Part shown: piece by piece, positions 212 to 29,267 of the stretch
How positions within the stretch are numbered: the first letter of the stretch is position 1
Layout: each line of letters begins with the position of its first letter
NCBI GenBank assembly: GCA_034336665.1
Contig: CM067590.1
Span: 4,311,748-4,375,747 of the forward strand
Direction of reading: 5' to 3'
DNA from: Luscinia megarhynchos
Taxonomy: Eukaryota > Chordata > Aves > Passeriformes > Turdidae
DNA: 64,000 bases
Translations under genes and position numbers: made by a program
Notes under the pieces: model-generated
Databases searched by the model: none
Seen by the model: only the letters and a program-made list of their open reading frames with translations
What the model was told of the DNA's origin: nothing

Positions 212-1125
212 CGTTGATGTAGAGGCTGTCCTTGTCCAGGCTGTAGGGGCCCAGCTGGGTGATGCCTGTGGTCTTGTTGCTCACTTCGTGGTACAGCCCC
301 ACCCTGTCCAGAGGCGCGGCCCAGGGCTCCTTGCTGTAGCTGCACACGGCGTCCACCCGGGTCTGGTCCCTGTGACTGCCCGGCCTGCAAAACACAGGCA
401 CCTCCCTGAGCACACTGCTCTGCAAGATTTCCTCTTGAGCATGGGTCTTGGAACAGCCGTGGTCATTTAGTAGTTGGATTGCAAGCTCTATCTTCCCAAC
501 ATAAGAGTTTGTGCCCTTGTTGCCTGGACACTCTACTCTGGCTTCAATAAGAGTCTGGACATGTCCATGAGAGAGGGGACCTGGAAGAACTTTCGTATCA
601 ACTTGAGACTGGGCCTCCACCACCCAAAGAGGAGAGTGCATAAGGTGAGGGTGAGATGAAGACAGAGGCAGTGCAGAAAGAAATTCTGGGAAGGACGGAG
701 AATGTCTTTGCTCGATAAAGAGGAGAACATGAACATGAACATGACTGGTTCTCTTATGTCAGTAATGGGACTGCCAAGACACACAGGAGGGCCACTCATA
801 CCTGAAGTCGGTTGTCTCACATCCTTGGAAAACAGGGCCAATGCTGCTTCCCTTCAGCAGGCGGTCAAGCTGACAACAGGAAAGTATTCCGAGTTAGAGC
901 ATGGCCACCTCACTGGACAGAGCCCAATTTTAGAGTGCCCAGGGTGGCCAAAACAATTTCCAGGTGATGGTCCACTTACCAGGGTGTTCATAACCCTTCG
1001 TGTAGCTCTGAACTTGGCTGAGTCAGGATTCTCCAGGTCAGAAGAGTAGGGGAGGTTGGTGATGGTGAAGTTGATGGTGAAATGCTCAAGAGCAGGAGGT
1101 GTTGTTTTTGTTGGATGGATTGGAG
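212..1125 (-). CDS. MUC16: SEA module 11 (last module in window)
   Basis: Exons: A 980-1125 (146 nt), B 802-869, C 212-384. It is a class I module. Exon C ends SLYING rather than SLYVNG. Its donor GTGACA is followed by AT-rich intron sequence with no resemblance to the 109-nt C-D intron that follows every other C exon. No D exon is seen in positions 1-211, so the next exon lies outside the window. Like the others, this SEA aligns FRPGSHRDQTRVDAVC over the place where self-cleaving SEA domains have GSVVV, so it is not expected to autoproteolyse. Confidence 0.83.
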
Positions 1126-1355
1126 CTAGAAGCAGCAGAGATGGGGAATTATAAATTTTAAAATCATGATTGTTACAGCTCTGGCTGAATGAGCATAGAG
1201 GCCTCCATGCAGCCCTCCTCTCCATGGCCAAGGCTGGGAATCTCCCCATGTCCCCAGGATCTCATGCCCCAGGTCCCAACCTCCAATGTTTTAAAGAAGA
1301 ACAGTTTGGGCACTGGTTATCTTATGAACCCATCCCACTGCTTTAAGGTACTCAC

Positions 1356-2424
1356 TGGTGGGCACTGGCTGCTCGTTGTATCCTGAGAAAAGAGAGAGAC
1401 AGAGAGTCAGGGGCTGGATGAGGGCAAGGGGCAGCACTGGGGCAGGGCTGCCATGGAGAGCAGAGGAGGCCGAGGGAGGAGCGCCGGTCACCGTTGACGT
1501 AGAGGCTGTCCTTGTCCAGGCTGTAGGGGCCCAGCTGGGTGATGCCTGTGGTCTTGTTGCTCACTTCGTGGTACAGCCCCACCCTGTCCAGAGGCGCGGC
1601 CCAGGGCTCCTTGCTGTAGCTGCACACGGCGTCCACCCGGGTCTGGTCCCTGTGACTGCCCGGCCTGCAAAGCACAGGCACCTCCCTGAGCACCCTGCTC
1701 TGCACATTCTCCACTCATGGCTGGGTATTGGCGCTTCCACAGCCATTTGCAAGTTGAATTGCTATGTCTGCCTTCCCAAAATATGTGTGTGTGTTTAGCA
1801 AACAGATATGCTCTTCATCTTCACTAATGCTCGGTGGCAATTGATGAATGAGAGTGTCTGGAAACATTTTAACTTGAGTTTACTAAATAATCATAGCCTA
1901 GTGCATGCCAAGATTGGAGTACAGACTTAGAGGGGGACACCTAAGAGGAAGTGACATCAGGGAGAACATCCTGGAGCAGGACAGCATTAGCAGGAAGGGC
2001 CTGCCTCTGGGAAGGAGGAGAACATGAGTGTCCTCCAGGCAAGGCTCAGACGTTTTTATGTGAGCATGGGGCTTGGAAGCGGAGACGGGGGTGCAACCCA
2101 TACCTGAAGCCAGTTGTTTCACATCCATGGAAAACAGGAGCAATGCTGCTTCCCTTCAGCAGACGGTCGAGCTGCCAGGAGAAGGGGGTTCAAAATTTAA
2201 GCCATGGCCAGGATTCTGAACTGCTTCCAACCTGATGCAGTCAGGGAGGTCAAGGAAATGAATCAGTGCTTGTTCACTTACCATCATTTTCATAACCCTT
2301 TGTGTCGCCCTGAATTTGGCCGAGTCAGGATTCTCCAGGTTAGAGGAGTAGCGGAGGTTGGTGATGGTGAAGTTGACAGTGAAATGCTCCAGGGAGACAG
2401 CTGTTGTTGTTGGATGGATGGCAG
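1356..2424 (-). CDS. MUC16: SEA module 10 (variant A-exon end)
   Basis: Exons: A 2282-2424 (143 nt), B 2104-2171, C 1492-1664, D 1356-1382. The B-C intron is class II. Exon A is unusual: it lacks the Ala-rich class II start, has an Arg to Gln change, and ends RVMKMM where all other modules end RVMNTL. B reads SSIAPVFHGCETTGFR. The donor ATG|GTAAGT is still sound. Exon C remains indistinguishable from its neighbours. Confidence 0.82.
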
Positions 2425-2656
2425 CTGGAAGAAGCAGAGATCAGGAATTACAGATTGGAAAGTCTTACTTGTTACAGCTCAGGCTGGATGAGTGCAGAGG
2501 TCTCCTGTCATCTCTGCTCTCTGTGACACGAGCTTAAGTGCTCCCCAAGTCTCCAAAGTCTCCTGCCCCAGTCCCAGCCATCCTGTGTCCAAACGAGAGG
2601 CCACAGGGGGGAAGTGGCTGTCTTATGAACCCATCCCACTGCTGCAAGGTACTCAC

Positions 2657-3706
2657 TGCTCAGCACGGGCTGCTCGTTGTATCCTGAGAAAAGAGAGAGA
2701 CAGAGGGTCAGGGGCTGGATGAGGGCAAGGGGCAGCACTGGGGCAGGGCTGCCATGGAGAGCAGAGGAGGCCGAGGGAGGAGCGCCGGTCACCGTTGACG
2801 TAGAGGCTGTCCTTGTCCAGGCTGTAGGGGCCCAGCTGGGTGATGCCTGTGGTCTTGTTGCTCACTTCGTGGTACAGCCCCACCCTGTCCAGAGGCGCGG
2901 CCCAGGGCTCCTTGCTGTAGCTGCACACGGCGTCCACCCGGGTCTGGTCCCTGTGACTGCCCGGCCTGCAAAGCACAGGCACCTCCCTGAGCACCCTGCT
3001 CTGCAAGATTTCCTCTTGAGCATGGGTCTTGGAACAGCCGTGGTCATTTAGTAGTTGGATTGCAAGCTCTATCTTCCCAACATAAGAGTGTGTACCCTTG
3101 TTGCCTGCACACTCTACTCTAGCTTCAATAAGAGTCTGGACATGTCCATGAGAGAGGGGGCCTGGAAGAACTGTTGAATCAACTTGAGACTGGGCCTCCC
3201 CCAAACAAAGAGGAGAGTGCATAAGGTGAGGGTGAAATGAAGACAGAGGCAGTGCAGAAAGAAATCCTGGGAAGGACGGAGAATGTCTTTGCTCGATAAA
3301 GAGGAGAACATGAACATGAACATGACTGGTCCTCTTATGTAAGTAATGGGACTGCCAAGGCACACAGGAAGGCCACTCATACCTGAAGTCTGTTGTCTCA
3401 CATCCTTGGAAAACAGGGCCAATGCTGCTTCCCTTCAGCAGGCGGTCAAGCTGCCAACAGAAAAGTTTTCCCAGTTAGGGTATGGCCACCTCACTGGACA
3501 CAGCCCAAGTTTAGAGTGCGCAGGGTGGCTAAAACAATTTCCAGGTGCTGGTCCACTTACCAGGGTGTTCATAACCCTTCGTGTAGCTCTGAACTTGGCT
3601 GAGTCAGGATTCTCCAGGTCAGAAGAGTAGGGGAGGTTGGTGATGGTGAAGTTGATGGTGAAACGCTCAAGAGCAGGAGGTGTTGTTGTTGCTGGATGGA
3701 TTGGAG
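2657..3706 (-). CDS. MUC16: SEA module 9
   Basis: Exons: A 3561-3706 (146 nt), B 3383-3450, C 2793-2965, D 2657-2683. It is a class I module with SSIGPVFQGCETTDFR in B. The linker exon D ends PVLS rather than PVPT. Together with module 10 it may represent a repeat of the class I/class II pair seen in modules 8 and 9. The splice phases match the rest of the array. Confidence 0.85.
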
Positions 3707-3937: not shown

Positions 3938-5014
3938 TTGTGGGCACTGGCTGCTCGTTGTATCCTGGGAAAAGAGAGAGACAGAGGGTCAGGGGCTGGA
4001 TGAGGGCAAGGGGCAGCACTGGGGCAGGGCTGCCATGGAGAGCAGAGGAGGCCGAGGGAGGAGCGCCTGTCACCATTGACGTAGAGGCTGTCCTTGTCCA
4101 GGCTGTAGGGGCCCAGCTGGGTGATGCCTGTGGTCTTGTTGCTCACTTCGTGGTACAGCCCCACCCTGTCCAGAGGCGCGACCCAGGGCTCCTTGATGTA
4201 GCTGCACACGGCGTCCACCCGGGTCTGGTCCCTGTGACTGCCCGGCCTGCAAAGCACAGGCACCTCCCTGAACACCCTGCTCTGCACATTCTCCACTCAT
4301 GCCTCGATATTGGTGATTCCACACCCCTTTGCAAGTTGAATTGCTATGTCTGCCTTCCCAAAATATGTGTGTGTGTTTAGCGGACAGATATGCTCTTCAT
4401 CTTCACTAATGCTCGGAGACAATTGATGAATGGGAGTGTCTGGAAACACTTTAAAAGTATTCTTGAGTTTACTAAATAATCATAGCCTAGACCATGCAAA
4501 GATGAGAGTATGGGCTTAGAGGGGGACACCTAAGAGGAAGTGGCATCAGGGAGAACATCCTGGAGCAGGACAGCATTAGCAGGAAGGGCCTGCCTCTGGG
4601 AAGGAGGGGAACATGAGTGGCCTCCAGCCAAGGCCCCGACCTGTTATGGAAGCATGGTCCTTTCAAAGGGACAATTGGGTGCAACCCCTACCTGAAGCCA
4701 GTTGTTTCACATCCATGGAAAACAGGAGCAATGCTGCTTCCCTTCAGCAGACGGTCGAGCTGCCAAGAGAAGAGGTTTCCTTGTTAAGCCATGGTTAGCT
4801 CTCTGCACTCCCTCCAGGCTGATCAGCCCAGTGGGGCCAAAAATATTTCCAAGTAATCCTCCTCTTACCAGAGTGTTCATAACCCTTCGTGTAGCTCTGA
4901 ACTTGGCCGAGTCAGGATTCTCCAGGTCAGAGGTGTAGTGGAGGTTGGTGATGGTGAAGTTGATGGTGAAACGCTCCAGGGCAGCAGCTGTTGTTGTTGC
5001 TGGAAGGGTGGGAG
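3938..5014 (-). CDS. MUC16: SEA module 8
   Basis: Exons: A 4869-5014 (146 nt), B 4692-4759, C 4074-4246, D 3938-3964. It is a class II module. C carries two changes relative to the consensus copy, SYIKEPWVAP for SYSKEPWAAP, and its last codons use AAT instead of AAC (VNG). A reads LHYTSDLEN. Donors and acceptors keep their consensus, including GTGACA after exon C. Confidence 0.85.
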
Positions 5015-5241: not shown

Positions 5242-6290
5242 TGGTGGGCACTGGTTGCTCGTTGTATCCTGAGAAAAGAGAGAGACAGAGGGTCAGGGGC
5301 TGGATGAGGGCAAGGGGCAGCACTGGGACAGGGCTGCCATGGAGAGCAGAGGAGGCCGAGGGAGGAGCGCCGGTCACCGTTGACGTAGAGGCTGTCCTTG
5401 TCCAGGCTGTAGGGGCCCAGCTGGGTGATGCCTGTAGTCTTGTTGCTCACTTCGTGGTACAGCCCCACCCTGTCCAGAGGCGCGGCCCAGGGCTCCTTGC
5501 TGTAGCTGCACACGGCGTCCACCCGGGTCTGGTCCCTGTGACTGCCCGGCCTGCAAAACACAGGCACCTCCCTGAGCACCCTGCTCTGCAAGATTTCTTC
5601 TTGAGCATGGGTCTTGGAACTGCCATGGTCATTTAGTAGTTGGATTGCAAGCTCTATCTTCCCAACATAAGAGTGTGTGCTCTTGTTGCCTGCACACTCT
5701 ACTCTAGCTTCAATAAGAGTCTGGACATGTCCATGAGAGAGGGGGCCTGGAAGAACTTTTGAATCAACTTGAGATAGGGCCTCCACCACCCAAAGAGGAG
5801 AGTGCATAAGGTGAGGGTGAAATGAAGACAGAGGCAGTGCAGAAAGAAATCCTGGGAAGGATGGAGAATGTCTTTGCTCGATAAAGAGGAGAACATGAAC
5901 ATGAACATGACTGGTTCTCTTATGTAAGTAATGGGACTGCCAAGGCACACAGGAGGGCCACTCATACCTGAAGTCTGTTGTCTCACACCCTTGGAAAACA
6001 GGGCCAATGCTGCTTCCCTTCAGCAGGCGGTCAAGCTGACAAGAGAAAATTTTCCCAGTTAGGGCATGGCCACCTCACTGGACACAGCCCAATTTTAGAG
6101 TGCGCAGGAAGGCCAAGACAATTTCCAGGTGCTGGTCCACTTACCAGGGTGTTCATAACCCTTCGTGTAGCTCTGAACTTGGCTGAGTCAGGATTCTCCA
6201 GGTCAGAAGAGTAGGGGAGGTTGGTGATGGTGAAGTTGATGGTGAAACGCTCGAGAGCAGGAGGTGTTGTTGTTGTTGGATGGATAGGAG
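5242..6290 (-). CDS. MUC16: SEA module 7
   Basis: Exons: A 6145-6290 (146 nt), B 5968-6035, C 5378-5550, D 5242-5268. It is a class I module. The B exon has FQGCETTDF with the preceding Gly-Cys context changed by one base relative to module 6 (cacaccc versus cacatcc in + strand sense). The N-F-T and N-K-T sequons and the Cys pair are retained. Splice sites are intact. Confidence 0.85.
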
Positions 6291-6520: not shown

Positions 6521-7567
6521 TGGTGGGCACTGGCTGCTCGTTGTATCCTGGGAAAAGAGAGAGACAGAGGGTCAGGGGCTGGATGAGGGCAAGGGGCAGC
6601 ACTGGGGCAGGGCTGCCATGGAGAGCAGAGGAGGCCGAGGGAGGAGCGCCGGTCACCGTTGACGTAGAGGCTGTCCTTGTCCAGGCTGTAGGGGCCCAGC
6701 TGGGTGATGCCTGTGGTCTTGTTGCTCACTTCGTGGTACAGCCCCACCCTGTCCAGAGGCGCGGCCCAGGGCTCCTTGCTGTAGCTGCACACGGCGTCCA
6801 CCCGGGTCTGGTCCCTGTGACTGCCCGGCCTGCAAAGCACAGGCACCTCCCTGAGCACCCTGCTCTGCAAGATTTCCTCTTGAGCATGGGTCTTGGAACT
6901 GCCATGGTCATTTAGTAGTTGGATTGCAAGCTCTATCTTCCCAACATAAGAGTGTGTGCTCTTGTTGCCTGCACACTCTACTCTAGCTTCAATAAGAGTC
7001 TGGACATGTCCATGAGAGAGGGGGCCTGGAAGAACTTTCGTATCAACTTGAGACTGGGCCTCCACCACCCAAAGAGGAGAGTGCATAAGGTGAGGGTGAA
7101 ATGAAGACAGAGGCAGTGCAGAAAGAAATTCTGGGAAGGACGGAGAATGTCTTTGCTCGATAAAGAGGAGAACATGAACATGAACATGACTGGTTCTCTT
7201 ATGTAAGTAATGGGACTGCCAAGGCACACAGGAGGGCCACTCATACCTGAAGTCTGTTGTCTCACATCCTTGGAAAACAGGGCCAATGCTGCTTCCCTTC
7301 AGCAGGCGGTCAAGCTGCCAACAGAAAAGATCTCCCAGTTAGGGCATGGACACCTCACTGGACACAGCCCAAGTTTAGAGTGCGCAGGAAGGCCAAGACA
7401 ATTTCCAGGTGCTGGTCCACTTACCAGGGTGTTCATAACCCTTCGTGTAGCTCTGAACTTGGCTGAGTCAGGATTCCCCAGGTCAGAAGAGTAGGGGAGG
7501 TTGGTGATGGTGAAGTTGATGGTGAAACGCTCAAGAGCAGGAGGTGTTGTTGTTGGATGGATTGGAA
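6521..7567 (-). CDS. MUC16: SEA module 6
   Basis: Exons: A 7425-7567 (143 nt), B 7247-7314, C 6657-6829, D 6521-6547. It is a class I module with SSIGPVFQGCETTDFR in B. A has Gly for Glu before NPDSAKF (SDLGNP). Its introns and exons are very close to module 7, so the two look like a recent tandem duplication. Confidence 0.85.
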
Positions 7568-7804: not shown

Positions 7805-8881
7805 TGGTGGGCACTGGCTGCTCGTTGTATCCTGAGAAAAGAGAGAGACAGAGGGTCAGGGGCTGGATGAGGGCAAGGGGCAGCACTGGGGCAGGGCTGC
7901 CATGGAGAGCAGAGGAGGCCGAGGGAGGAGCGCCTGTCACCGTTGACGTAGAGGCTGTCCTTGTCCAGGCTGTAGGGGCCCAGCTGGGTGATGCCTGTGG
8001 TCTTGTTGCTCACTTCGTGGTACAGCCCCACCCTGTCCAGAGGCGCGACCCAGGGCTCCTTGCTGTAGCTGCACACGGCGTCCACCCGGGTCTGGTCCCT
8101 GTGACTGCCCGGCCTGCAAAGCACAGGCACCTCCCTGAGCACCCTGCTCTGCACATTCTCCACTCATGGCTGGGTATTGGTGATTCCACAGCCATTTGCA
8201 AGTTGAATTGCTATGTCTGCCTTCCCAAAATATGTGTGTGTGTTTAGCGGACAGATATGCTCTTCATCTTCACTAATGCTCGGAGACAATTGATGAATAG
8301 GAGTGTCTGGAAACACTTTAAAAGTATCCTTGAGTTTACTAAATAATCATAGCCTAGACCATGCCAAGATGAGAGTATGGGCTTAGAGGGGGACACCTAA
8401 GAGGAAGTGGCATCAGGGAGAACATCCTGGAGCAGGACAGCATTAGCAGGAAGGGCCTGCCTCTGGGAAGGAGGAGAACATGAGTGGCCTCCAGCCAAGG
8501 CCCCGACCTCTTATGGAAGCATGGTCCTTTCAAAGGGACAATTGGGTGCAACCCATACCTGAAGCCAGTTGTTTCACATCCCTGGAAAACAGGAGCAATG
8601 CTGCTTCCCTTCAGCAGACGGTCGAGCTGCCAAGAGAAGAGGTTTCCTTGTTAAGCCATGGTTAGCTCTCTGCACTCCCTCCAGGCTGATCAGCCCATTG
8701 GGGCCAAAAATATTTCCAAGTAATCCTCCTCTTACCAGAGTGTTCATAACCCTTCGTGTAGCTCTGAACTTGGCCGAGTCAGGATTCTCCAGGTCAGAGG
8801 TGTAGCGGAGGTTGGTGATGGTGAAGTTGATGGTGAAACGCTCCAGGGCAGCAGCTGTTGTTGTTGCTGGAAGGGTGGGAG
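7805..8881 (-). CDS. MUC16: SEA module 5
   Basis: Exons: A 8736-8881 (146 nt), B 8559-8626, C 7941-8113, D 7805-7831. It is a class II module. C carries KEPWVAP where most copies have KEPWAAP. B has FPGCETTGF rather than FHGCETTGF. The Cys pair and both N-glycosylation sequons (NFT in A, NKT in C) are retained, and the splice sites are intact. Confidence 0.85.
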
Positions 8882-9108: not shown

Positions 9109-10196
9109 TGGTGGGCACTGGCTGCTCGTTGTATCCTGAGAAAAGAGAGAGACAGAGGGTCAGGGGCTGGATGAGGGCAAGGGGCAGCACTGGGGCAGGG
9201 CTGCCATGGAGAGCAGAGGGAGGCCGAGGGAGGAGCGCCGGTCACCGTTGACGTAGAGGCTGTCCTTGTCCAGGCTGTAGGGGCCCAGCTGGGTGATGCC
9301 TGTGGTCTTGTTGCTCACTTCGTGGTACAGCCCCACCCTGTCCAGAGGCGCGGCCCAGGGCTCCTTGCTGTAGCTGCACACGGCGTCCACCCGGGTCTGG
9401 TCCCTGTGACTGCCCGGCCTGCAAAGCACAGGCACCTCCCTGAGCACCCTGCTCTGCACATTCTCCACTCATGGCTGGGTATTGGTGATTCCACAGCCCC
9501 TTTGCAAGTTGAATTGCTATGTCTGCCTTCCCAAAACATGTGTGTGTGTTTAGCGGACAGATATGCTCTTCATCTTCACTAATGCTCGGAGACAATTGAT
9601 GAATGGGAGTGTCTGGAAACACTTTAAAAGTATCCTTGAGTTTACTAAATAATCATAGCCTAGGCCATGCCAAAGATGAGAGTGCATGGGCTTAGAGGGG
9701 GACACCTAAGAGGAAGTGGCATCAGGGAGAACATCCTGGAGCAGGACAGCATTAGCAGGAAGGGCCTGCCTCTGGGAAGGAGGAGAACATGAGTGGCCTC
9801 CAGCCAAGGCCCCGACCTCTTATGGAAGCATGGTCCTTTCAAAGGGACAATTGGGGTGCAACCCATACCTGAAGCCAGTTGTTTCACATCCATGGAAAAC
9901 AGGAGCAATGCTGCTTCCCTTCAGCAGACGGTCGAGCTGCCAAGAGAAGAGGTTTCCCTGTTAAGCCATGATTAGCTCTCTGCACTCCCTCCAGGCTGAT
10001 CAGCCCAGTGGGGAGGCCAAGACATATTTCCAAAGTAATCCTCCTCTTACCAGAGTGTTCATAACCCTTCGTGTAGCTCTGAACTTGGCCGAGTCAGGAT
10101 TCTCCAGGTCAGAGGTGTAGCGGAGGTTGGTGATGGTGAAGTTGATGGTGAAACGCTCCAGGGCAGCAGCTGTTGTTGTTGCTGGAAGGGTGGGAG
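9109..10196 (-). CDS. MUC16: SEA module 4
   Basis: Exons: A 10051-10196 (146 nt), B 9869-9936, C 9246-9418, D 9109-9135. It is a class II module: A carries the Ala-rich start and LRYTSDLEN, and B carries SSIAPVFHGCETTGFR. Small insertions in the introns (for example in the A-B and C-D introns) distinguish it from module 5, to which it is otherwise nearly identical. Splice sites and phases are intact. Confidence 0.85.
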
Positions 10197-10429: not shown

Positions 10430-11463
10430 TGGTGGGCACTGGCTGCTCGTTGTATCCTGAGGAAAGAGAGAGACAGAAGGTCAGGGGCTGGATGAGGGCA
10501 AGGGGCAGCACTGGGGCAGGGCTGCCATGGAGAGCAGGGGAGGCCGAGGGAGGAGCGCCTGTCACCGTTGACGTAGAGGCTGTCCTTGTCCAGGCTGTAG
10601 GGGCCCAGCTGGGTGATGCCTGTGGTCTTGTTGCTCACTTCGTGGTACAGCCCCACCCTGTCCAGAGGCGCGGCCCAGGGCTCCTTGCTGTAGCTGCACA
10701 CGGCGTCCACCCGGGTCTGGTCCCTGTGACTGCCCGGCCTGCAAAGCACAGGCACCTCCCTGAGCACCCTGCTCTGCACATTTTCCAACAGGCATGGTCT
10801 GGCTCATCCATTGCCATTCCTGTGTGAGAAACCATGGTCTGCCTTCCACAACTATGTGTGTCATGATCAGCCACTGCTCTCCACCATCACTAATGCTCTG
10901 CTGCTCTTCATGAATAAGACGGCTTGGAAGGAATTGAGAATCCTCTTGGGGCAGGGCCTTCACCACCCAAGACAGTAAAGGCAATGCATGTGGGGTCTAA
11001 CAGAGAAGGGCATCAGACAGAAGGCAGAGGTGCAGGAGGGCATTATTGGGAAGGTTCAGCCTCCATTAAAATGGAAAAGATGTGTGTGACTGCCTACATT
11101 ATCAGAGGGAGGTCTTCAGAGAAATATACTGGAGTGCAACTCATACCTGAAGCCTGTTGTTTCACATCCATGGAAAGCTGTGCCAATACTGCTTTTCTTC
11201 AGCAGGCGCTCGAGCTGTCAAGGGAAGAAGTTTTCCAGTTATGGCAGGACTATCTATGCACTTCCTCCAAGATGCTGAGGCCAATGATGTCAAGGAAAGG
11301 TTCACTGCTGGTCCACTTACCAGAGTGTTCATAACCCTTTGGGTAGCCCTGAACTTGGCTGAGTCAGGATTCTCCAGGTCAGAATTGTAGGGGAGGTTGG
11401 TGATGGTGAAGTTGATGGTGAAACGCTCGAGAGCAGGAGGTGTCGTCATTGGGTATGTTGGAG
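10430..11463 (-). CDS. MUC16: SEA module 3 (most divergent module)
   Basis: Exons: A 11321-11463 (143 nt), B 11147-11214, C 10566-10738, D 10430-10456. A starts TPTYPMTTPPALERF and has LPYNSDLEN and RATQRVMNTL. B reads LERLLKKSSIGTAFHGCETTGFR. The roughly 408-nt B-C intron belongs to neither common class and looks like an older or separate lineage. In contrast, exon C and the C-D intron are essentially identical to the other modules, which suggests recent homogenisation of the 3' part only. Confidence 0.85.
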
Positions 11464-11700: not shown

Positions 11701-12778
11701 TGGTCAGCACTGGCTGCTCGTTGTATCCTGAGGAAAGAGAGAGACAGAGGGTCAGGGGCTGGATGAGGGCAAGGGGCAGCACTGGGGCAGGGCTGCCATG
11801 GAGAGCAGAGGAGACCGAGGGAGGAGCGCCGGTCACCGTTGACGTAGAGGCTGTCCTTGTCCAGGCTGTAGGGGCCCAGCTGGGTGATGCCTGTGGTCTT
11901 GTTGCTCACTTCGTGGTACAGCCCCACCCTGTCCAGAGGCGCGGCCCAGGGCTCCTTGCTGTAGCTGCACACGGCGTCCGCCCGGGTCTGGTCCCTGTGA
12001 CTGCCCGGCCTGCAAAAGCACAGGCACCTCCCTGAGCACCCTGCTCTGCACATTCTCCACTCATGGCTGGGTATTGGTGATTCCACAGCCCTTTGCAAGT
12101 TGAATTGCTATGTCTGCCTTCCCAAAACATGTGTGTGTGTTTAGCGGACAGATATGCTCTTCATCTTCACTAATGCTCGGAGACAATTGATGAATGGGAG
12201 TGTCTGGAAACACTTTAAAAGTATCCTTGAGTTTACTAAATAATCATAGCCTAGGCCATACAAAGATGAGAGTATGGGCTTAGAGGGGGACACCTAAGAG
12301 GAAGTGGCATCAGGGAGAACATCCTGGAGCAGGACAGCATTAGCAGGAAGGGCCTGTCTCTGGGAAGGAGGAGAACAGGAGTGGCCTCCAGCCAAGGCCC
12401 CGACCTGTTATGGAAGCATGGTCCTTTCAAAGGGACAATTGGGTGCAACCCATACCTGAAGCCAGTTGTTTCACATCCATGGAAAACAGGAGCAATGCTG
12501 CTTCCCTTCAGCAGACGGTCGAGCTGCCAAGAGAAGAGGTTTCCTTGTTAAGCCATGGTTAGCTCTCTGCACTCCCTCCAGGCTGATCAGCCCAGTGGGG
12601 GCAAGAATATTTCCAAATAATCCTCCTCTTACCAGAGTGTTCATAACCCTTCGTGTAGCTCTGAACTTGGCCGAGTCAGGATTCTCCAGGTCAGAGGTGT
12701 AGCGGAGGTTGGTGATGGTGAAGTTGATGGTGAAACGCTCCAGGGCAGCAGCTGTTGTTGTTGCTGGAAGGGTGGGAG
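11701..12778 (-). CDS. MUC16: SEA module 2
   Basis: Exons: A 12633-12778 (146 nt), B 12456-12523, C 11837-12009, D 11701-11727. A has the class II start, an extra Ala run before LERFTINFTI, and LRYTSDLENPDSAKF. B reads SSIAPVFHGCETTGFR. C differs from the other copies by Val to Ala in the RVDAVC region (RADAVC). One extra A lies in the intron just upstream of the C acceptor. D encodes GYNEQPVLT. The B-C intron is class II. All splice phases are preserved, so the module is predicted to be intact. Confidence 0.85.
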
Positions 12779-17700: not shown

Positions 17701-20700
17701 GAATTCTGTTGTCATGGACGTGGGCCCTGTGCGGGGCTCAGAGGTTGAGGCTGACATACCAGCAGAAGCAGAGGTTGTCTCTGCCGCGGTGGTGAAGCCT
17801 GCACTTGTTGAACTGGTCTCCAGGATAGAGCTCTCGGTAAGAGAAGAGGTGGTGGCAGAAGTTGGGCTTGTCCCAGGAGAAGCGGATGATGTTTGTGCAG
17901 GGACCGCAGAGGTCGCAGTTGTATCTGTGGCTTCTGTGGTGACCGGGTAAGGAGTGGATGTCTCAGCAGGGGCTGGATTGGATGCTAGTGGTGGCGGAAG
18001 CCTTTATGCTGGAGCTTTCTGGTGAGGTCGAGAGGATTGTTGAGGCCGTCACAATTGGAGATGTTCTTGCCCGAGTTGAAGAGGCTGGAGCCGTAGATCC
18101 AGGCTGAGACGGGGACTGCACAGCCGACGTGGTGACTTCCGCCGTGCTGGTGCTGGTTGACACAGTGGTGGACTCAACAGGTGATATGGTCTGACCAGCT
18201 GCTTTGGAGGCTGTGTGACGAACAGTGCTGCCGGTGGGTGAAGCTGTGCTGAGAGCTGGTGAACTGACCTCCAGAGTAGAGCTCTCGGTAGGAGAAGAGG
18301 TGGTGGCAGAAGTTGGGCTTGTCCCAGGAGGAGCGGATGATGTTTGTGCAGGGACCGCAGAGGAGTCAGTTGTATCTGGGGCTTCTGTGTTGACCAGGTA
18401 AGGATTGTATGTCTCAGCAGGGTGTGATTTGATAGAAGTGGAGGCTGAAGCCTTTATGCTGGAGCTTTCTGGTGAGGTCGAGAGGATTGTTGAGGCTGTC
18501 ACAAGTGGAGACGTCACTGTCCCAACTGATGAGGCTGAAGCCGTAGACCCAGGCTGAGACGGGGACTGCACGACCAAGGTGGTGCCTTCCGCTGTTCTGG
18601 TGCGCCCAGACACAGTGGTGGCCTCAACAGGTTTTGTGGTCTGACCAGCTGCTGTGGAGGCTGTGTGAAGAACAGTGCTGGCGGTGGGTGAAGCAGTGCT
18701 GAGAGTTGGGGATGTCATCTCCAGAGTAGATCTCGTAGGATAAGCAGAACTGGTGGCAAAAGTTGGTCTTGTGCCAGGAGCAGAGGACGCCGTTGGTGCA
18801 TTGACCGTGGTGGTGGCGGTGGATGTTGCCTCTGTTGCTGCAGTGGTGACCTGCTCACGCAGGGGACTCTCAGTGGGGATGGATGCCACAGTAGTGGCAG
18901 CTGAAGTCTTCAGTGTGGTGGCTTGTTCTGCTGTCGAGAGGACAGTGGAGGTTGTCTCCAATGGAGATGTGTCTGCTCTAGTGGAAGAGGCTGGAGCCGT
19001 CGACACGCGACGCGTTGAGAACTGTGCAGCCGAGGTGGAGAATTCTGTTGTCATGGAGGTGGACCTTGTGCTGGGCTCAATGGTTGAGGTTGACGTAGTA
19101 GCAGAAGTAGAGGTTGCCTCTGCTGCGGTGGTGAAGCCTGCACTTGTTGAACTGGTCTCCAGGATAGAGCTCTCGGTAAGAGAAGAGGTGGTGGCAGAAG
19201 TTGGGCTTGTCCCAGGAGAAGCGGATGATGTTTGTGCAGGGACCGCAGAGGTGGCAGTTGTATCTGTGGCTTCTGTGGTGACCGGGTAAGGAGTGGATGT
19301 CTCAGCAGGGCTGGATTGGATGCTAGTGGTGGCTGAAGCCTTTATGCTGGAGCTTTCTGGTGAGGTCGAGAGGATTGTTGAGGCTGTCACAATTGGAGAC
19401 GTTCTTGCCCGAGTTGAAGAGGCTGAAGCCGTAGACCCAGGCTGAGACGGGGACTGCACAGCCGAGGTGGTGCCTTCCGCCGTGCTGGTGCGCCCAGACA
19501 CAGTGGTGGACTCAACGGGTGATGTGGTCTGACCAGCTGCTGTGGAGGCTGTGTGAAGAACAGTGCTGGCGGTGGGTGAAGCACTGCTGAGAGTTGGGGA
19601 AATGATCTCCAGAGTAGATCTAGGAGGATGAGCAGAACTGGTGGCAGAAGTTGGTCTTGTGCCAGGAGCAGAGGACGCCGTTGGTGCATTGACCGTGGTG
19701 GTGGCGGTGGATGTTGCCTCTGTTGCTGCAGTGGTGACCTGCTCACGCAGGGGACTCTCAGTGGGGATGGAAGCCACAGTAGTGGCAGCTGAAGTCTTCA
19801 GTGTGGTGGCTTGTTCTGCTGTCGAGAGGACAGTGGAGGTTGTCTCCAATGGAGATGTGTCTGCTCTAGTGGAAGACGCTGGAGCCGTCGACACGCGACG
19901 CGTTGAGAATTGTGCAGCCGAGGTGGAGAATTCTGTTGTCATGGAGGTGGACCCTGTGCTGGGCTCAATGGTTGAGGCAGACGTAGCAGCAGAAGTAGAG
20001 GTTGTCTCTGCCGCGGTGGTGAAGCCTGCACTTGTTGAACTGGTCTCCAGGGTAGAGCTCTCGGTAAGAGAAGAGGTGGTGGCAGAAGTTGGGCTTGTCC
20101 CAGGAGAAGCGGATGATGTTTGTGCAGGGACCGCAGAGGAGGCAGTTGTATCTGTGGCTTCTGTGGTGACCGGGTAAGGAGTGGATGTCTCAGCAGGGCT
20201 GGATTGGATGCTAGTGGTGGCTGAAGCCTTTAGGCTGGAGCTTTCTGGTGAGGTCGAGAGGATTGTTGAGGCTGTCACAATTGGAGACGTTCTTGCCCGA
20301 GTTGAAGAGGCTGAAGCCGTAGACCCAGGCTGAGACGGGGACTGCACAGCCGAGGTGGTGCCTTCCGCCGTGCTGGTGCTGGTTGACACAGTGGTGGACT
20401 CAACGGGTGATGTGGTCTGACCAGCTGCTGTGGAGGCTGTGTGAAGAACAGTGCTGGCGGTGGGTGAAGCACTGCTGAGAGATGGGGAAATGATCTCCAG
20501 AGTAGATCTAGGAGGATGAGCAGAACTGGTGGCAGAAGTTGGTCTTGTGCCAGGAGCAGAGGACGCCGTTGGTGCATTGACCGTGGTGGTGGCGGTGGAT
20601 GTTGCCTCTGTTGCTGCAGTGGTGACCTGCTCACGCAGGGGACTCTCAGTGGGGATGGATGCCACAGTAGTGGCAGCTGAAGTCTTCAGTGTGGTGGCTT

Positions 20701-23700
20701 GTTCTGCTGTCGAGAGGACAGTGGAGGTTGTCTCCAATGGAGATGTGTCTGCTCTAGTGGAAGAGGCTGGAGTCGTCGACACACGATGCCTTGTGGACTG
20801 TGCAGCCGAGGTGGAGAATTCTGTTGTCATGGAGGTGGGCCCAGTGATGGACTCAAAGGTTGAGGTTGACGTAGCAGCAGAAATAGAGGTTGTCTCGGAT
20901 GTAGTGCTGATGCTTGTAGCTGTGCTGAGAGCTGGTGAACTGGTCTCCAGAGTAGAGCTCTCGGTAGGAGAAGAGGTGGTGGCAGAAGTTGGGCTTGTCC
21001 CAGGAGGAGCGGATGATGTTTGTGCAGGGACCGCAGAGGTCGCAGTTGTATCTGTGGCTTCTGTGGTGACCGGGTAAGGATTGGATGTCTCAGCAGGGCT
21101 GGATTGGATGCTAGTGGTGGCTGAAGCCTTTATGCTGGAGCTTTCTGGTGAGGTCGAGAGGATTGTTGAGGCTGTCACAAGTGGAGACGTCACTGTCCCA
21201 GTTGATGAGGCTGAAGCCGTAGACCCAGGCTGAGATGGGGACTGCACAGCCGAGGTGGTGCCTTCCACCGTGCTGGTGCTCCCAGACACAGTGGTGGACT
21301 CAACGGGTGATGTGGTCTGACCAGCTGCTGTGGAGGCTGTGTGAAGAACAGTGCTGGCGGTGGGTGAAGCAGTGCTGAGAGTTGGGGAAATGAACTCCAG
21401 AGTAGATCTTGGAGGATGAGCAGAACTGGTGGCAGAAGTTGGTCTTGTGCCAGGAGCAGAGGACGCCGTTGCTGCAAAGACTGTGGTGGTGGCGGTACTT
21501 TTCTCTGTTACTGGAATGTGGACATAGTCAACAATGGATGTTCCAGGAGGAATAGAATTTGAAGTGGAGTCTAAAGCCTTTAGGCTGGTGCTTTCCATTG
21601 TGGTCAACAGAATTGTTGAGGTTGTCACAAGTGGAGACGTCTCCATCCGAGTTGAAGAGGCTGAAGCCGTAGACCCAGGCTGAGATGGGGACTGCACAGC
21701 CGAGGTGGTGCCTTCTGCCATGCTGGTGCTCCCGGAAACAGTGGTGGACTCAACGGGTGATGTGGTCTGACCAGCTGCTGTGGAGGCTGTGTGAAGAACA
21801 GTGCTGGCGGTGGGTGAAGCACTGCTGAGAGTTGGGGATGTGATCTCCAGAGTAGATCTCGTAGGATAAGCAGAACTGGTGGCAAAAGTTGGTCTTGTGC
21901 CAGGAGCAGAGGACGCCGTTGTTGCACTGACCGTGCTGGTGGCAGTGGATGTTGCCTCTGTTGCTGCAGTGGTGACCTGCTCACGCAGGGGACTCTCAGT
22001 GGGGATGGATTGCACTGTAGTGGCAGCTGAAGTCTTCAGTGTGGTGGCTTGTTCTGCTGTCGAGAGGACAGTGGAGGTTGTCTCCAATGGAGATGTGTCT
22101 GCTCTAGTGGAAGAGGCTGGAGCCGTCGACACGCGACGCGTTGAGAACTGTGCAGCCGAGGTGGAGAATTCTGTTGTCATGGAGGTGGACCCTGTGCTGG
22201 GCTCAATGGTTGAGGTTGACGTAGCAGCAGAAGTAGAGGTTGTCTCTGCCGCGGTGGTGAAGCCTGCACTTGTTGAACTGGTCTCCAGGGTAGAGCTCTC
22301 GGTAAGAGAAGAGGTGGTGGCAGAAGTTGGGCTTGTCCCAGGAGAAGCGGATGATGTTTGTGCAGGGACCGCAGAGGTCGCAGTTGTATCTGTGGCTTCT
22401 GTGGTGACCGGGTAAGGAGTGGATGTCTCAGCAGGGCTGGATTGGATGCTAGTGGTGGCTGAAGCCTTTAGGCTGGAGCTTTCTGGTGAGGTCGAGAGGA
22501 TTGTTGAGGCCGTCACAAGTGGAGATGTTCTTGCCCGAGTTGAAGAGGCTGAAGCCGTAGACCCAGGCTGAGACGGGGACTGCACAGCCGACGTGGTGAC
22601 TTCCGCCGTGCTGGTGCTGGTTGACACAGTGGTGGACTCAACGGGTGATATGGTCTGACCAGCTGCTTTGGAGGCTGTGTGACGAACAGTGCTGCCGGTG
22701 GGTGAAGCTGTGCTGAGAGCTGGTGAACTGACCTCCAGAGTAGAGCTCTCGGTAGGAGAAGAGGTGGTGGCAGAAGTTGGGCTTGTCCCAGGAGAAGCGG
22801 ATGATGTTTGTGCAGGGACCGCAGAGGTCGCAGTTGTATCTGTGGCTTCTGTGGTGACCGGGTAAGGAGTGGATGTCTCAGCAGGGCTGGACTGGATGCT
22901 AGTGGTGGCTGAAGCCTTTAGGCTGGAGCTTTCTGGTGAGGTCGAGAGGATTGTTGAGGCTGTCACAAGTGGAGATGTTGCTGCCCGAGTTGAAGAGGCT
23001 GAAGCCGTAGACCCAGGCTGAGACGGGGACTGCACAGCCGAGGTGGTGCCTTCCGCCATGCTGGTGCGCCCAGACACAGTGGTGGACTCAACGGGTGATG
23101 TGGTCTGACCAGCTGCTGTGGAGGCTGTGTGAAGAACAGTGCTGGCGGTGGGTGAAGCACTGCTGAGAGTTGGGGAAATGATCTCCAGAGTAGATCTAGG
23201 AGGATGAGCAGAACTGGTGGCAAAAGTTGGTCTTGTGCCAGGAGCAGAGGACGCCGTTGGTGCATTGACCGTGCTGGTGGCGGTGGATGTTGCCTCTGTT
23301 GCTGCAGTGGTGACCTGCTCACGCATGGGACTCTCAGTGGGGATGGATGCCACAGTAGTGGCAGCTGAAGTCTTCAGTGTGGTGGCTTGTTCTGCTGTCG
23401 AGAGGACAGTGGAGGTTGTCTCCAATGGAGATGTGTCTGCTCTAGTGGAAGAGGCTGGAGCCGTCGACACGCGACGCGTTGAGAACTGTGCAGCCGAGGT
23501 GGAGAATTCTGTTGTCATGGACGTGGACCCTGTGCTGGGCTCAGAGGTTGAGGTTGACGTAGCAGCAGAAGTAGAGGTTGTCTCTGCCGCAGTGGTGAAG
23601 CCTGCACTTGTTGAACTGGTCTCCAGTGTAGTACTCTTGGTAAGAGAAGAGGTGGTGGCAGAAGTTGGGGTTGTCCCAGGAGAAGCGGATGATGTTTGTG

Positions 23701-24216
23701 CAGGGACCGCAGAGGAGGCAGTTGTATCTGTGGCTTCTGTGGTGACCGGGTAAGGAGTGGATGTCTCAGCAGGGCTGGATTGGATGCTAGTGGTGGCTGA
23801 AGCCTTTAGGCTGGAGCTTTCTGCTGAGGTCGAGAGGATTGTTGAGGCTGTCACAATTGGAGATGTTGTAGATGTTTTTTCCATCTTTTTCGTAGTTACC
23901 TGTTGAAGTGTGGTTGTTCTGCCTGGGGTGGAATCATCTTCTCTTGTTCCTTCTGGATTTGTGGTTGTTGTTTCTTCTCTCATGCTGACAGTTGTGGTTT
24001 CATTCACTCCGTCCATATTTTTTCCCCAAACCGATGTTTGTGACGTTGTTTTTCCGTCCATTGGGCTTGAGTTTTTCCCATTCCCATATATTATAGTTGT
24101 TGTGTATGTTTTGTCATGCCTAGGTGCTGTAGTCGTCCTTGTTTGCATGTCTGTAGATGATGTTGATACTTTAATGGTCTGTCTTGTAGGAACACTGACT
24201 TGTTGCTGTGAAGTTC
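14721..24216 (-). CDS. MUC16: Exon 2 of MUC16-type mucin: giant Ser/Thr/Pro-rich O-glycosylated domain (one +1 frameshift)
   Basis: This single 9,496-nt exon is bounded by an acceptor (ttattacag, AG at 24217-24218) and a donor GTAAGT (GT at 14719-14720). Both junctions are phase 1, matching exon 1 upstream and SEA exon A downstream. It encodes about 3,165 residues dominated by Thr, Ser, Ala and Pro, with essentially no Cys, as expected of a mucin PTS domain. Roughly the first 120 residues are non-repetitive and carry N-glycosylation sequons (KNSS, NETT). The last 70 or so are also unique. Everything between is modules of 888, 450 or 900 bp. The frame is open from 24216 to 17963 and again, in another frame, from 17757 region to 14721. 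The break is a G4 run at 17969-17972 where every paralogous module has G3. If that extra G is real, the protein ends before any SEA domain; an assembly error seems likelier. In human MUC16 the equivalent domain is several times longer. Confidence 0.85.
14898..19373 (-). repeat. Mucin super-repeat copy 2 (L-S-L-S-L-L, about 4.47 kb)
   Basis: Anchors at 19374, 18486, 18036, 17147, 16697 and 15797, with a degenerate one near 14898, give spacings of 888, 450, 889, 450, 900 and about 900 bp. This is the same order of long and short modules as copy 1. The special segments recur at an offset of 4,464-4,465 bp: the SPTGSTVRHTASKAAG block near 18200 versus 22670, and the DYVHIPVTEKS block near 17050 versus 21515. 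The one-base change in offset is the frameshift at 17969-17972. The last 200 bp or so of the exon degenerate into unique sequence. Confidence 0.85.
17969..17972 (-). other. MUC16: Single-base homopolymer insertion (frameshift) in mucin exon 2
   Basis: The module beginning at 18036 is 889 bp, while every other full module is 888, 450 or 900 bp, all divisible by three. The extra base lies in GCAGGGGCTGG; the corresponding site one super-repeat away (about 22434) and the other modules read GCAGGGCTGG. The insertion yields a premature stop at about 17963 after SSPC. Without it, the next residues match the other modules. I infer a sequencing or assembly error in a homopolymer within a repeat; a true null allele is the alternative. 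Confidence 0.85.
19374..23837 (-). repeat. Mucin super-repeat copy 1 (L-S-L-S-L-L, 4,464 bp)
   Basis: A shared anchor (attgttgaggytgtcac) recurs at 23838, 22950, 22500, 21612, 21162, 20262 and 19374. The spacings are 888, 450, 888, 450, 900 and 888 bp. The first short module carries a segment with SPTGSTVRHTASKAAG. The second carries a distinctive, less repetitive stretch ending in DYVHIPVTEKS. All lengths are multiples of three, so expansion and contraction preserve the frame. Confidence 0.85.
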
Positions 24217-26395: not shown

Positions 26396-26941
26396 CCAAA
26401 TCTTTTAATTGTCACAAGTCACCAGCTGGACAACGGGAGGGAAGAGTTTCTGTGGGGTTTTTGCAGGGATTTGTTCTACCTGCACTCCCTGAGCACCCAC
26501 CTGCCCTATGAACACTGTGCCAAGCAAAGCACTGAGCTGTCCCCCTCAGCAGGATTGTCACCTGGGATCCAGCCCACAGCAAGGCCCAGCTCTGTCTGTT
26601 CTATACAAAAATAACGCCCTGTCTCTTCCCCATTCCTAAATCTTTGTTGTCTTTCTGGATTCCAGACTCAAGCAAGTGATGCTCTGGTATTTTGTGAATG
26701 AGAGGGCTTAGAAAACAGCAGAATATTACAAATAACAGGTGTGGTAATATCAGAACAGAATGGCAGGTCAGAGGAGAGGCAGTGAAAGGAAGGGGCAGCC
26801 AGTGTGGCAGTGAGTAAATTGTTAGTAGCTCCTCAAGCTTTGTTTCTACTCACAGACCTGCCCTTGTCTTTTTTATTCACATTAATGATCACAATACTGA
26901 ACATTGCAGAGTTTTCAGAATTAAGGATGCACATAAAAACA

Positions 26942-27213
26942 TTGGAGGGACAGGACCACAGGGAATGGCTGCCCACTGCCAGAGGGCAGGGCTGGGTGGG
27001 ATATTGGGCAGGAATTGTTCCCTGGCAGGGTGGGGAGGGGCTGGGATGGAATTCCCAGAGCAGCTGTGGCTGCCCCTGGATCCCTGGCAGTGCCCCAGGC
27101 CAGGCTGGACATTGGGGCTGGAGCAGCCTGGGACAGTGGGGGGTGTCCCTGCCATGGCAGGGGTGGCACTGGGTGGGATTTAAGGTCCCTTCCAACCCAA
27201 ACCATCCTATGTC
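26942..27213 (+). mobile_element. CR1 LINE 3' fragment
   Basis: Plus-orientation CR1 3' region ending in gtcccttccaacccaaacca, followed by AT-rich DNA. Confidence 0.8.
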
Positions 27214-29191
27214 ATATAAATATAAACATAAACATTTTTATATATATACTATTTTTCTATTTAAATATTAATATATTAATAAAAATAAAACAAAAATAAA
27301 AATATATCTCTATAAATGTCAGCAATATGTAGGGCTATTCCTAACACATGTAATCCCTGTACCTTGATGCATTTATATTTTTATATATTATTTTCTATAT
27401 TAACATATACATTATTTGCTATATCACCATCTAGAGAATGGTTAAATTTCTCCTTTTTTTTCTGTACTACCTGGAGGTATTAAGCCATTCCTTGCCATGC
27501 CTAGTAGATTGGTTATGGGGGATTTTTCAGAATACTAAAAGAGGGGAGCAAACACCCCTGCCAGAGGGATCTGGTGATGCACAGAGCTAAATTCTCTGTA
27601 TCCCAAACTCCTCTGGGAAGCAACCTGGAACCCCACATTTCTAGCAATTGGACAGGTTCATATTTAAGCAGTAATTTTGCAAACATTCAAATATTCAAAT
27701 TTAATTGCAAACTCCAGAATTAGTGACCTTTACCCTTCTAAGGGAACATTTGCTAAATCCACAGAGAATTCACCAGAATATCAAAGTTTCTGATCCCAGT
27801 CAGAAATTCCTAACGGGCATTTCCATGCTCCACACCAAAGCTGGATTTCTTTTGCAGTGCAGTGGGGAAAGTGAAATATTTTCACATCCACCTGCATTTA
27901 AAAATCTGGCTCTGTGCAGGAATCCTCATGCAGATTTCTATTCATCAGCTCACACAAAAACAGCCTAAATCTTACCAAGACGTGGTGAATTAATTGAAAT
28001 TAATATAATTCTATTAATATTAAAAACTCCAAGTGTTTTTGAGCCCATGCACTTTAAAGCAATGTTTAGCTCCAGTGTTTCCCCTCTAATTCAGAATTAA
28101 AACAGCCTTAATTGCCTTTAAATTTAAAACTAATTTCAATTAAGCTGCTGGCTGCATGAACAAAGACATTTTATATGTTGGCACCAATGTCCTTAAAATG
28201 TTCTCTAGTAATTTGAAATAATTAATTAATTAACTCTAGGAGAGTTCTGTAAGTCACTGGGACTTCAAGTCCTAAGTGTCCTATTTATTCCATAAAATGA
28301 AATTTATAAACCTTTGAGTAACACTACCACAAAGCTGCTTTTCCATATAGAAATCAAGTAATTCCAGCTTGATTTTTTTTTAAATGAAATTTAGATTATT
28401 AAATATCATCTAGATTTTAAATTCAGAGACATTTCCAAAGCTTTTCATGTTATTAGAAATATAATTTCAGAGACTGGAGCACTCCAGACCCTCTGTCATT
28501 TCATTGCCATTAATAATGTCATTTTTACCCACTTTTTAAAAAAATACACAATTGGAAAAATATTGTAAAATTGTCTAAATCTTTTAGCTTGATTATTTTC
28601 TATTAACAATTATGATTTGTATTCCCCCCCCTCTCTATGATTTCAAAACTCAACTGAGGAATGTAGATGAGCCATTTATAAAGTAAATATTAACGTCTCA
28701 TTCATCTCTTTTCAGAAAAGAAAATTAACTTTGTGTGCTAAAACAAATGTTGCCATTTATATTTTGGCTTTTGTTACAAGAAAATAGATCGGCTCAGCTT
28801 TGGTAATTCCTCTGTATTTATATTCAATAAATCTGAAAAATTAACGTTGTCCTCTCTCTTATTTTCTTCTTTTAACTGATGATTAAAAGTGCTAAAAATT
28901 GACAATACCATGAGAAAGATCAGCCCATCACTCCAAAGTGATTTGAGGTTTTTCAGTTATATGACAAATTCTGGATAGATTTAATAATCAATGTTTTTTA
29001 TGTTATTAGATGGGAATAAAACCTGTTTTGTTTTTAGTTTTAGTGGTGATCGTTTAATTTACAAAATCTGTTCAACTGCAAAAATATACTGAAAGAGTTT
29101 TTGTAATAAAAAAGTAAATTGGATAATTGTTTCAATTAAGCAATTAAATTAAGTATTTAATAAATTAAATAATTAAATCAATTTTACTTAC

Positions 29192-29267
29192 CGAAAGAGC
29201 AGCACAATACAATGATAACACACAAAACCTTCATCTTAGACCGGCATAAATTTCTCGTCCAATCCAT
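29192..29267 (-). CDS. MUC16: Exon 1 of MUC16-type mucin: signal peptide
   Basis: Read on the minus strand, the exon begins at an ATG (29267) with A at -3 and G at +4, and an in-frame second ATG follows at 29234. The second ATG starts a compact signal peptide (MKVLCVIIVLCCSF, then Gly) with a Lys followed by a hydrophobic core. The upstream start adds 11 residues (MDWTRNLCRSK). An in-frame TGA at 29352-29354 closes the frame upstream. The exon ends at 29192 with donor G|GTAAGT, leaving one base (phase 1). The acceptor at 24217/24218 supplies GA, so the joined codon is Gly and the frame runs directly into the Ser/Thr exon. The product would be routed to the ER/Golgi for heavy O-glycosylation. 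Which ATG is used, and whether a non-coding 5' exon exists, cannot be decided here; a 13-base A run sits just 5' of the first ATG. Confidence 0.75.

What the first reader, a model, noticed from the sequence alone, without database searches (positions are those of the whole stretch)
212..29267. A nearly complete extracellular part of a bird MUC16-type mucin, with every exon junction in phase
Signal-peptide exon, one 9.5-kb PTS exon and 11 SEA modules (A-B-C-D exons) connect with consistent phases (1, 1, then 0/2/1/1 repeating). The SEA modules keep the 19-residue Cys-loop spacing and both N-glycosylation sequons known from human CA125 repeats. Such repeat-rich genes are often fragmented or missed in automatic annotation.
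Basis: partly seen in the sequence, partly recalled or inferred. Interest (0 to 1): 0.8.

Follow-up and report, generated by a model that had tools for sequence, protein, structure and literature searches.

The report
Bird MUC16 gene with self-copying exons
This is the bird version of the human CA125 gene (MUC16), a huge sugar-coated protein of wet body surfaces; the gene family is known, but this copy shows a small two-exon piece that seems to have been copied from repeat to repeat, and a possible self-cutting site that mammals seem to have lost.

Summary
Corrections: the 9.5-kb PTS exon is not one open frame (surplus base near 17975), so junctions are in phase only across that break; the second N-glycosylation site is not at a human position; module 11 lacks exon D in the window. 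The rest lies left of the window: five more SEA modules, membrane span, tail and stop; 66 exons in all. Avian MUC16 is already known (Lang 2006) and annotated, though the flycatcher model appears to lack signal and PTS exons. Newly seen here: exon C (11 modules) and its intron and exon D (10 modules) are near-identical and GC-rich while flanking introns are unalike, which points to GC-biased gene conversion; and the penultimate SEA module carries GSIVV, close to MUC1's self-cleavage motif, in 35 of 37 bird entries, against 0 of 16 scorable mammal entries with GS[IV]VV.

The parts
29192..29267 (-). Exon 1: start codon and hydrophobic signal-type peptide (MDWTRNLCRSKMKVLCVIIVLCCSF), ends phase 1
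   Evidence: signal function judged by eye, no predictor run
14721..24216 (-). PTS exon, 9,496 nt; 3,164 residues in two frames, S+T+P 56%, no Cys; tandem units of about 450 bp, 20 copies by TRF
17963..18003 (-). Frame break inside the PTS exon (C4 instead of C3 at about 17975; overlap of the two ORFs)
   Evidence: 1 of 9 pattern-matched copies of the site differs
13006..14044 (-). SEA module 1: A 14044-13902, B 13793-13726, C 13313-13141, D 13032-13006
11701..12778 (-). SEA module 2: A 12778-12633, B 12523-12456, C 12009-11837, D 11727-11701
10430..11463 (-). SEA module 3: A 11463-11321, B 11214-11147, C 10738-10566, D 10456-10430
9109..10196 (-). SEA module 4: A 10196-10051, B 9936-9869, C 9418-9246, D 9135-9109
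   Evidence: Pfam SEA 7e-23
7805..8881 (-). SEA module 5: A 8881-8736, B 8626-8559, C 8113-7941, D 7831-7805
6521..7567 (-). SEA module 6: A 7567-7425, B 7314-7247, C 6829-6657, D 6547-6521
5242..6290 (-). SEA module 7: A 6290-6145, B 6035-5968, C 5550-5378, D 5268-5242
3938..5014 (-). SEA module 8: A 5014-4869, B 4759-4692, C 4246-4074, D 3964-3938
2657..3706 (-). SEA module 9: A 3706-3561, B 3450-3383, C 2965-2793, D 2683-2657
1356..2424 (-). SEA module 10: A 2424-2282, B 2171-2104, C 1664-1492, D 1382-1356
212..1125 (-). SEA module 11: A 1125-980, B 869-802, C 384-212; exon D lies left of the window (C31 4311243-4311217)
12996..13354 (-). First of ten complete copies of the homogenised cassette (about 40 bp of intron B-C, exon C, intron C-D, exon D, start of next intron); the other nine at 12050-11691, 10779-10420, 9459-9099, 8154-7795, 6870-6511, 5591-5232, 4287-3928, 3006-2647, 1705-1346; an eleventh copy stops at the end of exon C11 (212)

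Best explanation
Shown from sequence: a signal-type exon, a ~3,160-residue Ser/Thr/Pro-rich region, 14 standard SEA modules each with a Cys pair, two divergent SEA modules, one membrane span and a 32-residue tail exon with the stop. Inferred: the PTS region stands out from the epithelial surface as a glycan barrier, with the SEA array as a stalk below it. Module 15, second from the membrane, carries GSIVV, close to the GSVVV at which MUC1 cleaves itself; the most likely mechanism is that this module self-cleaves while folding, leaving two parts held non-covalently that can separate under shear and shed the barrier. The 11 outer modules evolve together: recombination inside a ~360-bp exon C-intron-exon D cassette copies it between modules with a bias to G and C, while modules 12-16 stay as stable single orthologues.
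For: Identity: human MUC16 SEA chains E 9.7e-35 to 4.4e-32, mouse 3e-21, MUC1 0.17; Pfam SEA in 4 of 4 spliced modules scanned; 96 protein hits, led by birds named mucin-16 (Ficedula 97%), Alligator 53%, mammals 32-44%; in a tree of 69 modules, modules 12, 13 and 14 each group first with the Ficedula counterpart, then with Corvus and other birds, and module 16 falls in an unresolved Ficedula/Corvus/window group. Completeness: stop codon, membrane span and tail in the left flank; the tail equals that of the Ficedula model letter for letter. Homogenisation: mean identity exon C 0.993 (11 modules) and intron C-D 0.973 (10), against introns A-B 0.69, B-C 0.68, D-A 0.71; cassette 0.983 both within and between intron types, while intron B-C is 0.951 within and 0.542 between; GC3 of exon C 0.91-0.93 in modules 1-11 against 0.60-0.69 in 12-14; GC of intron C-D 0.656 (modules 1-10) against 0.39 in modules 12-13; three residues of exon C are Q/S/T in 11 of 11 copies here but E/T/R in the 5 pattern-matched copies from Ficedula (1), Corvus (2) and Pseudopipra (2). 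Motif: GSIVV in 1 of 16 modules, module 15; conserved in sauropsid entries.
Against: Two frame breaks stand in the literal sequence: the PTS one, and exon A13, 150 nt where 149 would keep frame; if real, this individual makes no full-length protein. No transcript, no expression. Single-exon ORFs with half a SEA domain fell below Pfam's cut-off (3 of 3; 23.8-24.7 against 26.4 bits). Not every protein hit is called mucin-16: some are hypothetical or SEA-domain proteins, the pigeon one is named mucin-5AC-like, and some opossum entries are fused to a kinase; only 7,990 candidates were scored. Self-cleavage rests on a motif only; in human constructs no cleavage was seen in the last two SEA domains, and 12 residues next to the membrane were sufficient for cleavage (PMC4456727, passages). 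Module 15 matches the PDB weakly: mouse MUC16 4.6e-05, TMPRSS11D 8e-04, no MUC1 among 5 hits. A rough test in other species did not show exon C to be the more uniform part: of 9 entries with two modules compared, C was more alike in 2, equal in 2, less alike in 5 (some pairs mixed module classes). In humans the MUC16 repeat is reported as nearly fixed in length and the most degenerate of the mucins (PMC13345508, passages), so such homogenisation may not hold there.
Confidence: 0.9

Rival explanations
1. A recently broken MUC16: the frame breaks are real and the locus is a young pseudogene, or makes only a secreted PTS protein of about 2,100 residues.
For: Two one-base breaks in the literal sequence; the first is followed at once by a stop.
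Against: The other exons are open and splice sites intact (though sites were chosen partly by consensus); both breaks look like single surplus C bases, the kind an assembly can make (inference); the Ficedula protein reads straight through the A13-B13 junction; the other 8 pattern-matched copies of the PTS site lack the extra base.
Confidence: 0.12
2. The near-identity of the C-D cassettes is selection on the protein, not gene conversion.
For: Exon C is coding and holds the second Cys of the loop.
Against: Intron C-D is 97% identical across 10 modules while neighbouring introns are 68-71%; of the 6 variable sites among 173 in exon C only 2 are third positions (placed by hand), so silent sites are as uniform as the rest.
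Confidence: 0.04
3. The uniform cassettes are an assembly or polishing artefact that copied one cassette over the others.
For: Short reads map ambiguously within ~360-bp repeats; two one-base frame breaks hint at imperfect polishing.
Against: Cassettes are not letter-identical (97-99% to the first copy over the full length); flanking introns keep their own types; raised GC in coding and intron sequence alike is not expected from polishing.
Confidence: 0.08
4. Another SEA-domain protein (MUC1-like, agrin or perlecan type, TMPRSS11 type).
For: SEA domains occur in these; other SEA loci exist in this genome on C7, C1, C28, C6.
Against: MUC1 at E 0.17 and agrin not among the 7 hits; the two C7 loci barely match the modules (best E 0.013); tandem SEA array.
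Confidence: 0.01

Closest known systems
Mucin-16 of Ficedula albicollis (P0001, 1,099 aa, NCBI prediction)
   Same: 97% identity over modules 12 to tail; same order of modules 12-16, membrane span, tail
   Different: The model shows no PTS stretch or signal exon and few outer modules; its first ~130 residues match an upstream ORF of the window; exon C residues E/T/R instead of Q/S/T
Chicken Muc16 (Lang 2006, PMC1552070; passages read)
   Same: PTS domain followed by SEA domains, assigned MUC16 by tree
   Different: Described there with at least four SEA domains on chromosome 28 and no EST; here 16 SEA modules, signal-type exon, span and tail
Human MUC16/CA125 (PMC10829539, PMC3431878, PMC4456727; passages read)
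   Same: Tandem SEA modules with a C-loop of 19 residues, long Ser/Thr-rich region, single membrane span
   Different: Human: 19 repeats of 156 aa, each from five exons, DSVLV in the penultimate SEA. Here: 14 standard modules, about 137 aa from four exons in modules 1-13, GSIVV in the penultimate SEA
MUC1 SEA domain
   Same: GSVVV self-cleavage motif (as cited in PMC4456727 and PMC3431878, passages) resembles GSIVV of module 15
   Different: Single SEA domain; a standard module matches MUC1 only at E 0.17 and module 15 not among its 5 hits

Membership tests
MUC16 | SEA modules closest to MUC16 among SEA proteins | tested here: met
   the tree held MUC16 entries only, so it tests orthology within MUC16
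MUC16 | Many tandem SEA modules | tested here: met
   16 modules, 11 in the window; Pfam SEA in 4 of 4 scanned
MUC16 | Cys loop with 19 residues between | tested here: met
   19 in modules 1-13 and 16, 18 in module 14, no match in module 15
MUC16 | Long Ser/Thr-rich PTS region upstream, after a signal peptide | tested here: inconclusive
   Present with S+T+P 56%, but with a frame break; link to the SEA exons by phase and order only; no homologue of its start found
MUC16 | Single membrane span and short tail after the last SEA module | tested here: met
   conserved in 6 of the 7 orthologues printed (the chicken fragment ends earlier)
MUC16 | N-glycosylation sites at the human CA125 positions | tested here: not met
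NFT shared; FNTT and KNTS positions lost; extra NKT elsewhere.
MUC16 | Five exons per repeat, 156 aa (human) | tested here: not met
   Four exons, about 137 aa in modules 1-13 against the human figure in PMC3431878; a lineage difference, not an exclusion
MUC16 | Expression in wet-surface epithelia | not testable with these tools
   No RNA data
Self-cleaving SEA domain (MUC1 type) | G-S-[VI]-V-V at the cleavage turn | tested here: met
   GSIVV in module 15 only, 1 of 16 modules
Self-cleaving SEA domain (MUC1 type) | Cleavage shown biochemically | not testable with these tools
   Needs expressed protein

The most novel reading that the evidence does not exclude
Sauropsid MUC16 is a self-cleaving mucin: its penultimate SEA module keeps a near-canonical autoproteolysis motif that mammals eroded (DSVLV and similar), so the unsettled question of how CA125 is released in humans would stem from the loss of the ancestral cleavage module there. 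In parallel, the outer SEA array is driven by a GC-biased gene-conversion hotspot confined to one exon-intron-exon cassette.
Probability: 0.4. Interest if true: 0.6.

Novelty: new member of a known kind. Interest (0 to 1): 0.42.

Why it matters
A full gene model would let annotated bird MUC16 fragments be corrected and gives an exon-level view of how a CA125-type array changes. The localised, GC-raising homogenisation of one ~360-bp cassette is a clean natural case of likely gene conversion inside a coding array, with intron types as markers. The GS[VI][VI]V motif in birds, alligator, turtles and snakes, eroded in the mammals scored, makes the unsettled question of MUC16 shedding directly testable with two small recombinant domains.

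Tried and rejected
First exon table set wrong starts for exons A2, A4, A5, A8 and let the PTS frame break run on into later exons; replaced. An in-frame splice solution for exon A13/B13 was sought by eye and not found. Rfam on the window at gathering thresholds: 0 matches. A search with the first 140 PTS residues for homologous N-termini found nothing. A regex test of whether exon C is also the most uniform part in other species (9 of 16 entries had two modules to compare) gave C more alike in 2, equal in 2 (Calidris and Anser, modules identical), less alike in 5; some pairs mixed module classes, so I do not claim the cassette pattern for other species. The region 29.3-34 and 36-64 kb was read as six-frame ORFs: recurring ORF pieces that look like decayed retroelements (CR1 label recalled, not tested), no gene recognised, no family search of these ORFs run. 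Structure prediction was not run, because spliced proteins are not letter-for-letter products of the window. Literature: 0 papers for mucin-16 with passerine and for MUC16 with Ficedula; 1 unrelated paper for concerted evolution with SEA domain and exon (listing); MUC16 with gene conversion gave 8 papers, of which only the human pangenome preprint was opened (passages). The listings on the cleavage motif show human or general papers; I opened four of them by passages and saw no statement on birds or reptiles in those passages, but did not read whole texts.
Full report
WHAT IS THERE. The window is G000:C31:4311748-4375747 of a 1.09-Gb genome. On its minus strand lie a 76-nt exon beginning with a start codon and a hydrophobic stretch, then a 9,496-nt Ser/Thr/Pro-rich exon, then 11 SEA modules of four exons each (A, B, C, D; the 11th without D) with phases 1-0-2-1-1. 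A, B and C exons of modules 1-11 are open in the predicted frame in 33 of 33 cases. All 65 introns of the final model are GT-AG, but sites were chosen partly for that, so this is weak evidence. The coordinates of the finding match the first base of exon 1 and the last base of exon C11 exactly.

The PTS exon is two ORFs in different frames. At about 17975 one of nine pattern-matched copies of a repeat site reads CCCC where eight read CCC, giving an immediate stop; the 3' half continues in another frame. The literal exon therefore leaves in phase 2, not phase 1. Exon A13, left of the window, is 150 nt long where 149 would keep frame. The Ficedula protein reads through the A13-B13 junction without a break. 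Assembly error is my preferred reading of both, but no reads were available. The sequon claim is half right: NFT is shared with human, the FNTT and KNTS sites are lost, and the bird NKT lies elsewhere.

THE REST OF THE GENE. Three stretches to the left were fetched. They hold exon D of module 11, three further standard SEA modules (12-14), two divergent ones (15, 16), a membrane span (ELQFWAIILICLFTLLGFILLLLLCFL) and a 99-nt tail exon of 32 codons and a stop. The model has 66 exons, 16,328 nt, from window 29267 to C31:4301238; 45 exons lie in the window.

WHAT IT IS. Module 4 matches human MUC16 chains at E 9.7e-35 to 4.4e-32, mouse Muc16 at 3e-21 and MUC1 at 0.17. Modules 12 to tail gave 96 proteins among 7,990 scored candidates: Ficedula mucin-16 97%, Corvus 88%, Anser 72%, Alligator 53%, mammals 32-44%; not every hit is named mucin-16 (one is called mucin-5AC-like, several are hypothetical or SEA-domain proteins, some opossum entries are fused to a kinase). 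In a tree of 69 modules cut out by patterns from the window and 11 MUC16 entries (module 15 of the window left out; modules the pattern missed are absent), modules 12, 13 and 14 group first with the Ficedula counterpart and then with those of other birds, module 16 falls with Ficedula and Corvus in an unresolved group, and modules 1-11 form one clade of their own (support 0.785), with one Ficedula outer module as the nearest outsider. Chicken Muc16 was described in 2006 with a PTS domain and at least four SEA domains (PMC1552070, passages). So this is a new, much fuller member of a known family. The Ficedula model shows no PTS stretch, and its first ~130 residues match, at 61% and 71% over two pieces, an ORF at window 34097-35863 on the same strand, upstream of the exon-1 start: a likely mis-joined automatic model.

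THE HOMOGENISED CASSETTE. Across the modules mean identity is 0.90 (A), 0.69 (intron A-B), 0.91 (B), 0.68 (intron B-C), 0.993 (C) for 11 modules, and 0.973 (intron C-D), 0.944 (D), 0.71 (intron D-A) for 10. The uniform tract begins abruptly about 40 bp before exon C and ends some 10-25 bp after exon D. Intron B-C falls into types X (modules 2, 4, 5, 8, 10), Y (1, 6, 7, 9, 11) and Z (3). The cassette does not remember these types: 0.9828 within (16 pairs), 0.9830 between (29 pairs), while intron B-C is 0.951 within (20 pairs) and 0.542 between (35 pairs). The type of intron D-A predicts the type of the next module (mutual information 1.36 bits; 0.33% of 20,000 shuffles as high) but not that of its own module (0.44 bits; 67%); n is only 10 and the types were set at an 0.85 cut. 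Exon C has GC3 0.91-0.93 in modules 1-11 and 0.60-0.69 in 12-14; intron C-D has mean GC 0.656 in modules 1-10 against 0.39 in modules 12-13. A genome search found 13 places: 10 near-full copies and one ending at exon C in this array, and two weak matches in modules 12 and 14; none elsewhere, with the tool's caveat that counts are lower bounds. In exon C, 11 of 11 copies carry Q, S and T at three positions where the 5 pattern-matched copies from Ficedula (1), Corvus (2) and Pseudopipra (2) carry E, T and R: changes that seem derived and have reached every copy. Together this supports gene conversion with GC bias inside the cassette; unequal crossing-over in the same tract may contribute. Against a general rule: a rough test in other species did not show it, and human MUC16 is reported as nearly fixed in repeat length and degenerate (PMC13345508, passages).

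HOW IT MAY WORK. A tethered mucin: PTS barrier outside, SEA array below it, one span, short tail. Of the 16 modules only module 15 has a GS[IVL][VIL]V motif, RPGSIVVDC. In 87 of 96 homologues module 15 gave an alignment; 16 of these scored below 27 bits and were dropped as other modules, leaving 71. Of 37 named bird entries, 35 have GSIVV, one GSILV, and in one the motif was not found. Six of six alligator and turtle entries have GSVVV, four of four snake entries GSIIV, frogs GSIIA (3) and GSIIV (1); the one lizard entry was not scorable; the coelacanth has GSVKV and one shark GSVKC. Of 38 mammal entries 16 could be scored: 0 have GS[IV]VV, 7 keep G-S with changed following residues and 9 have lost the Gly. 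The human DSVLV site was proposed as the analogue of the MUC1 GSVVV site; in human constructs no cleavage was found in the last two SEA domains, and 12 residues next to the membrane were sufficient for cleavage (PMC4456727, passages; PMC3431878, passages). My reading: module 15 was ancestrally self-cleaving and still is in sauropsids. This step is inferred from the motif alone.

LIMITS.

Noticed in passing
34461-35534: GC-rich minisatellite (units of about 32 and 264 bp) upstream of the gene, within an ORF whose flanking parts match the N-terminus of the Ficedula mucin-16 model.
   Followed up: partly
48310-48692: Minisatellite of about 22-84 bp units with a recurring GTCCATGG word.
   Followed up: no
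57637-58005: Tandem repeat, 148-bp unit, 2.5 copies at 95%.
   Followed up: no
L009:7690-7839 (C31:4309437-4309586): Exon A13 has one base more than the reading frame allows, apparently right at its donor site.
   Followed up: partly
L001, L013 and L014 (C7): Two further SEA-coding places about 25 kb apart; one has a membrane-span ORF nearby and resembles TMPRSS11-type proteases (label recalled); both barely match the MUC16 modules.
   Followed up: partly
14938-23866: The PTS exon is built of about 20 units of 450 bp; spacings of about 450, 888-900 and 1338 bp between marked sites hint at a higher-order repeat.
   Followed up: no
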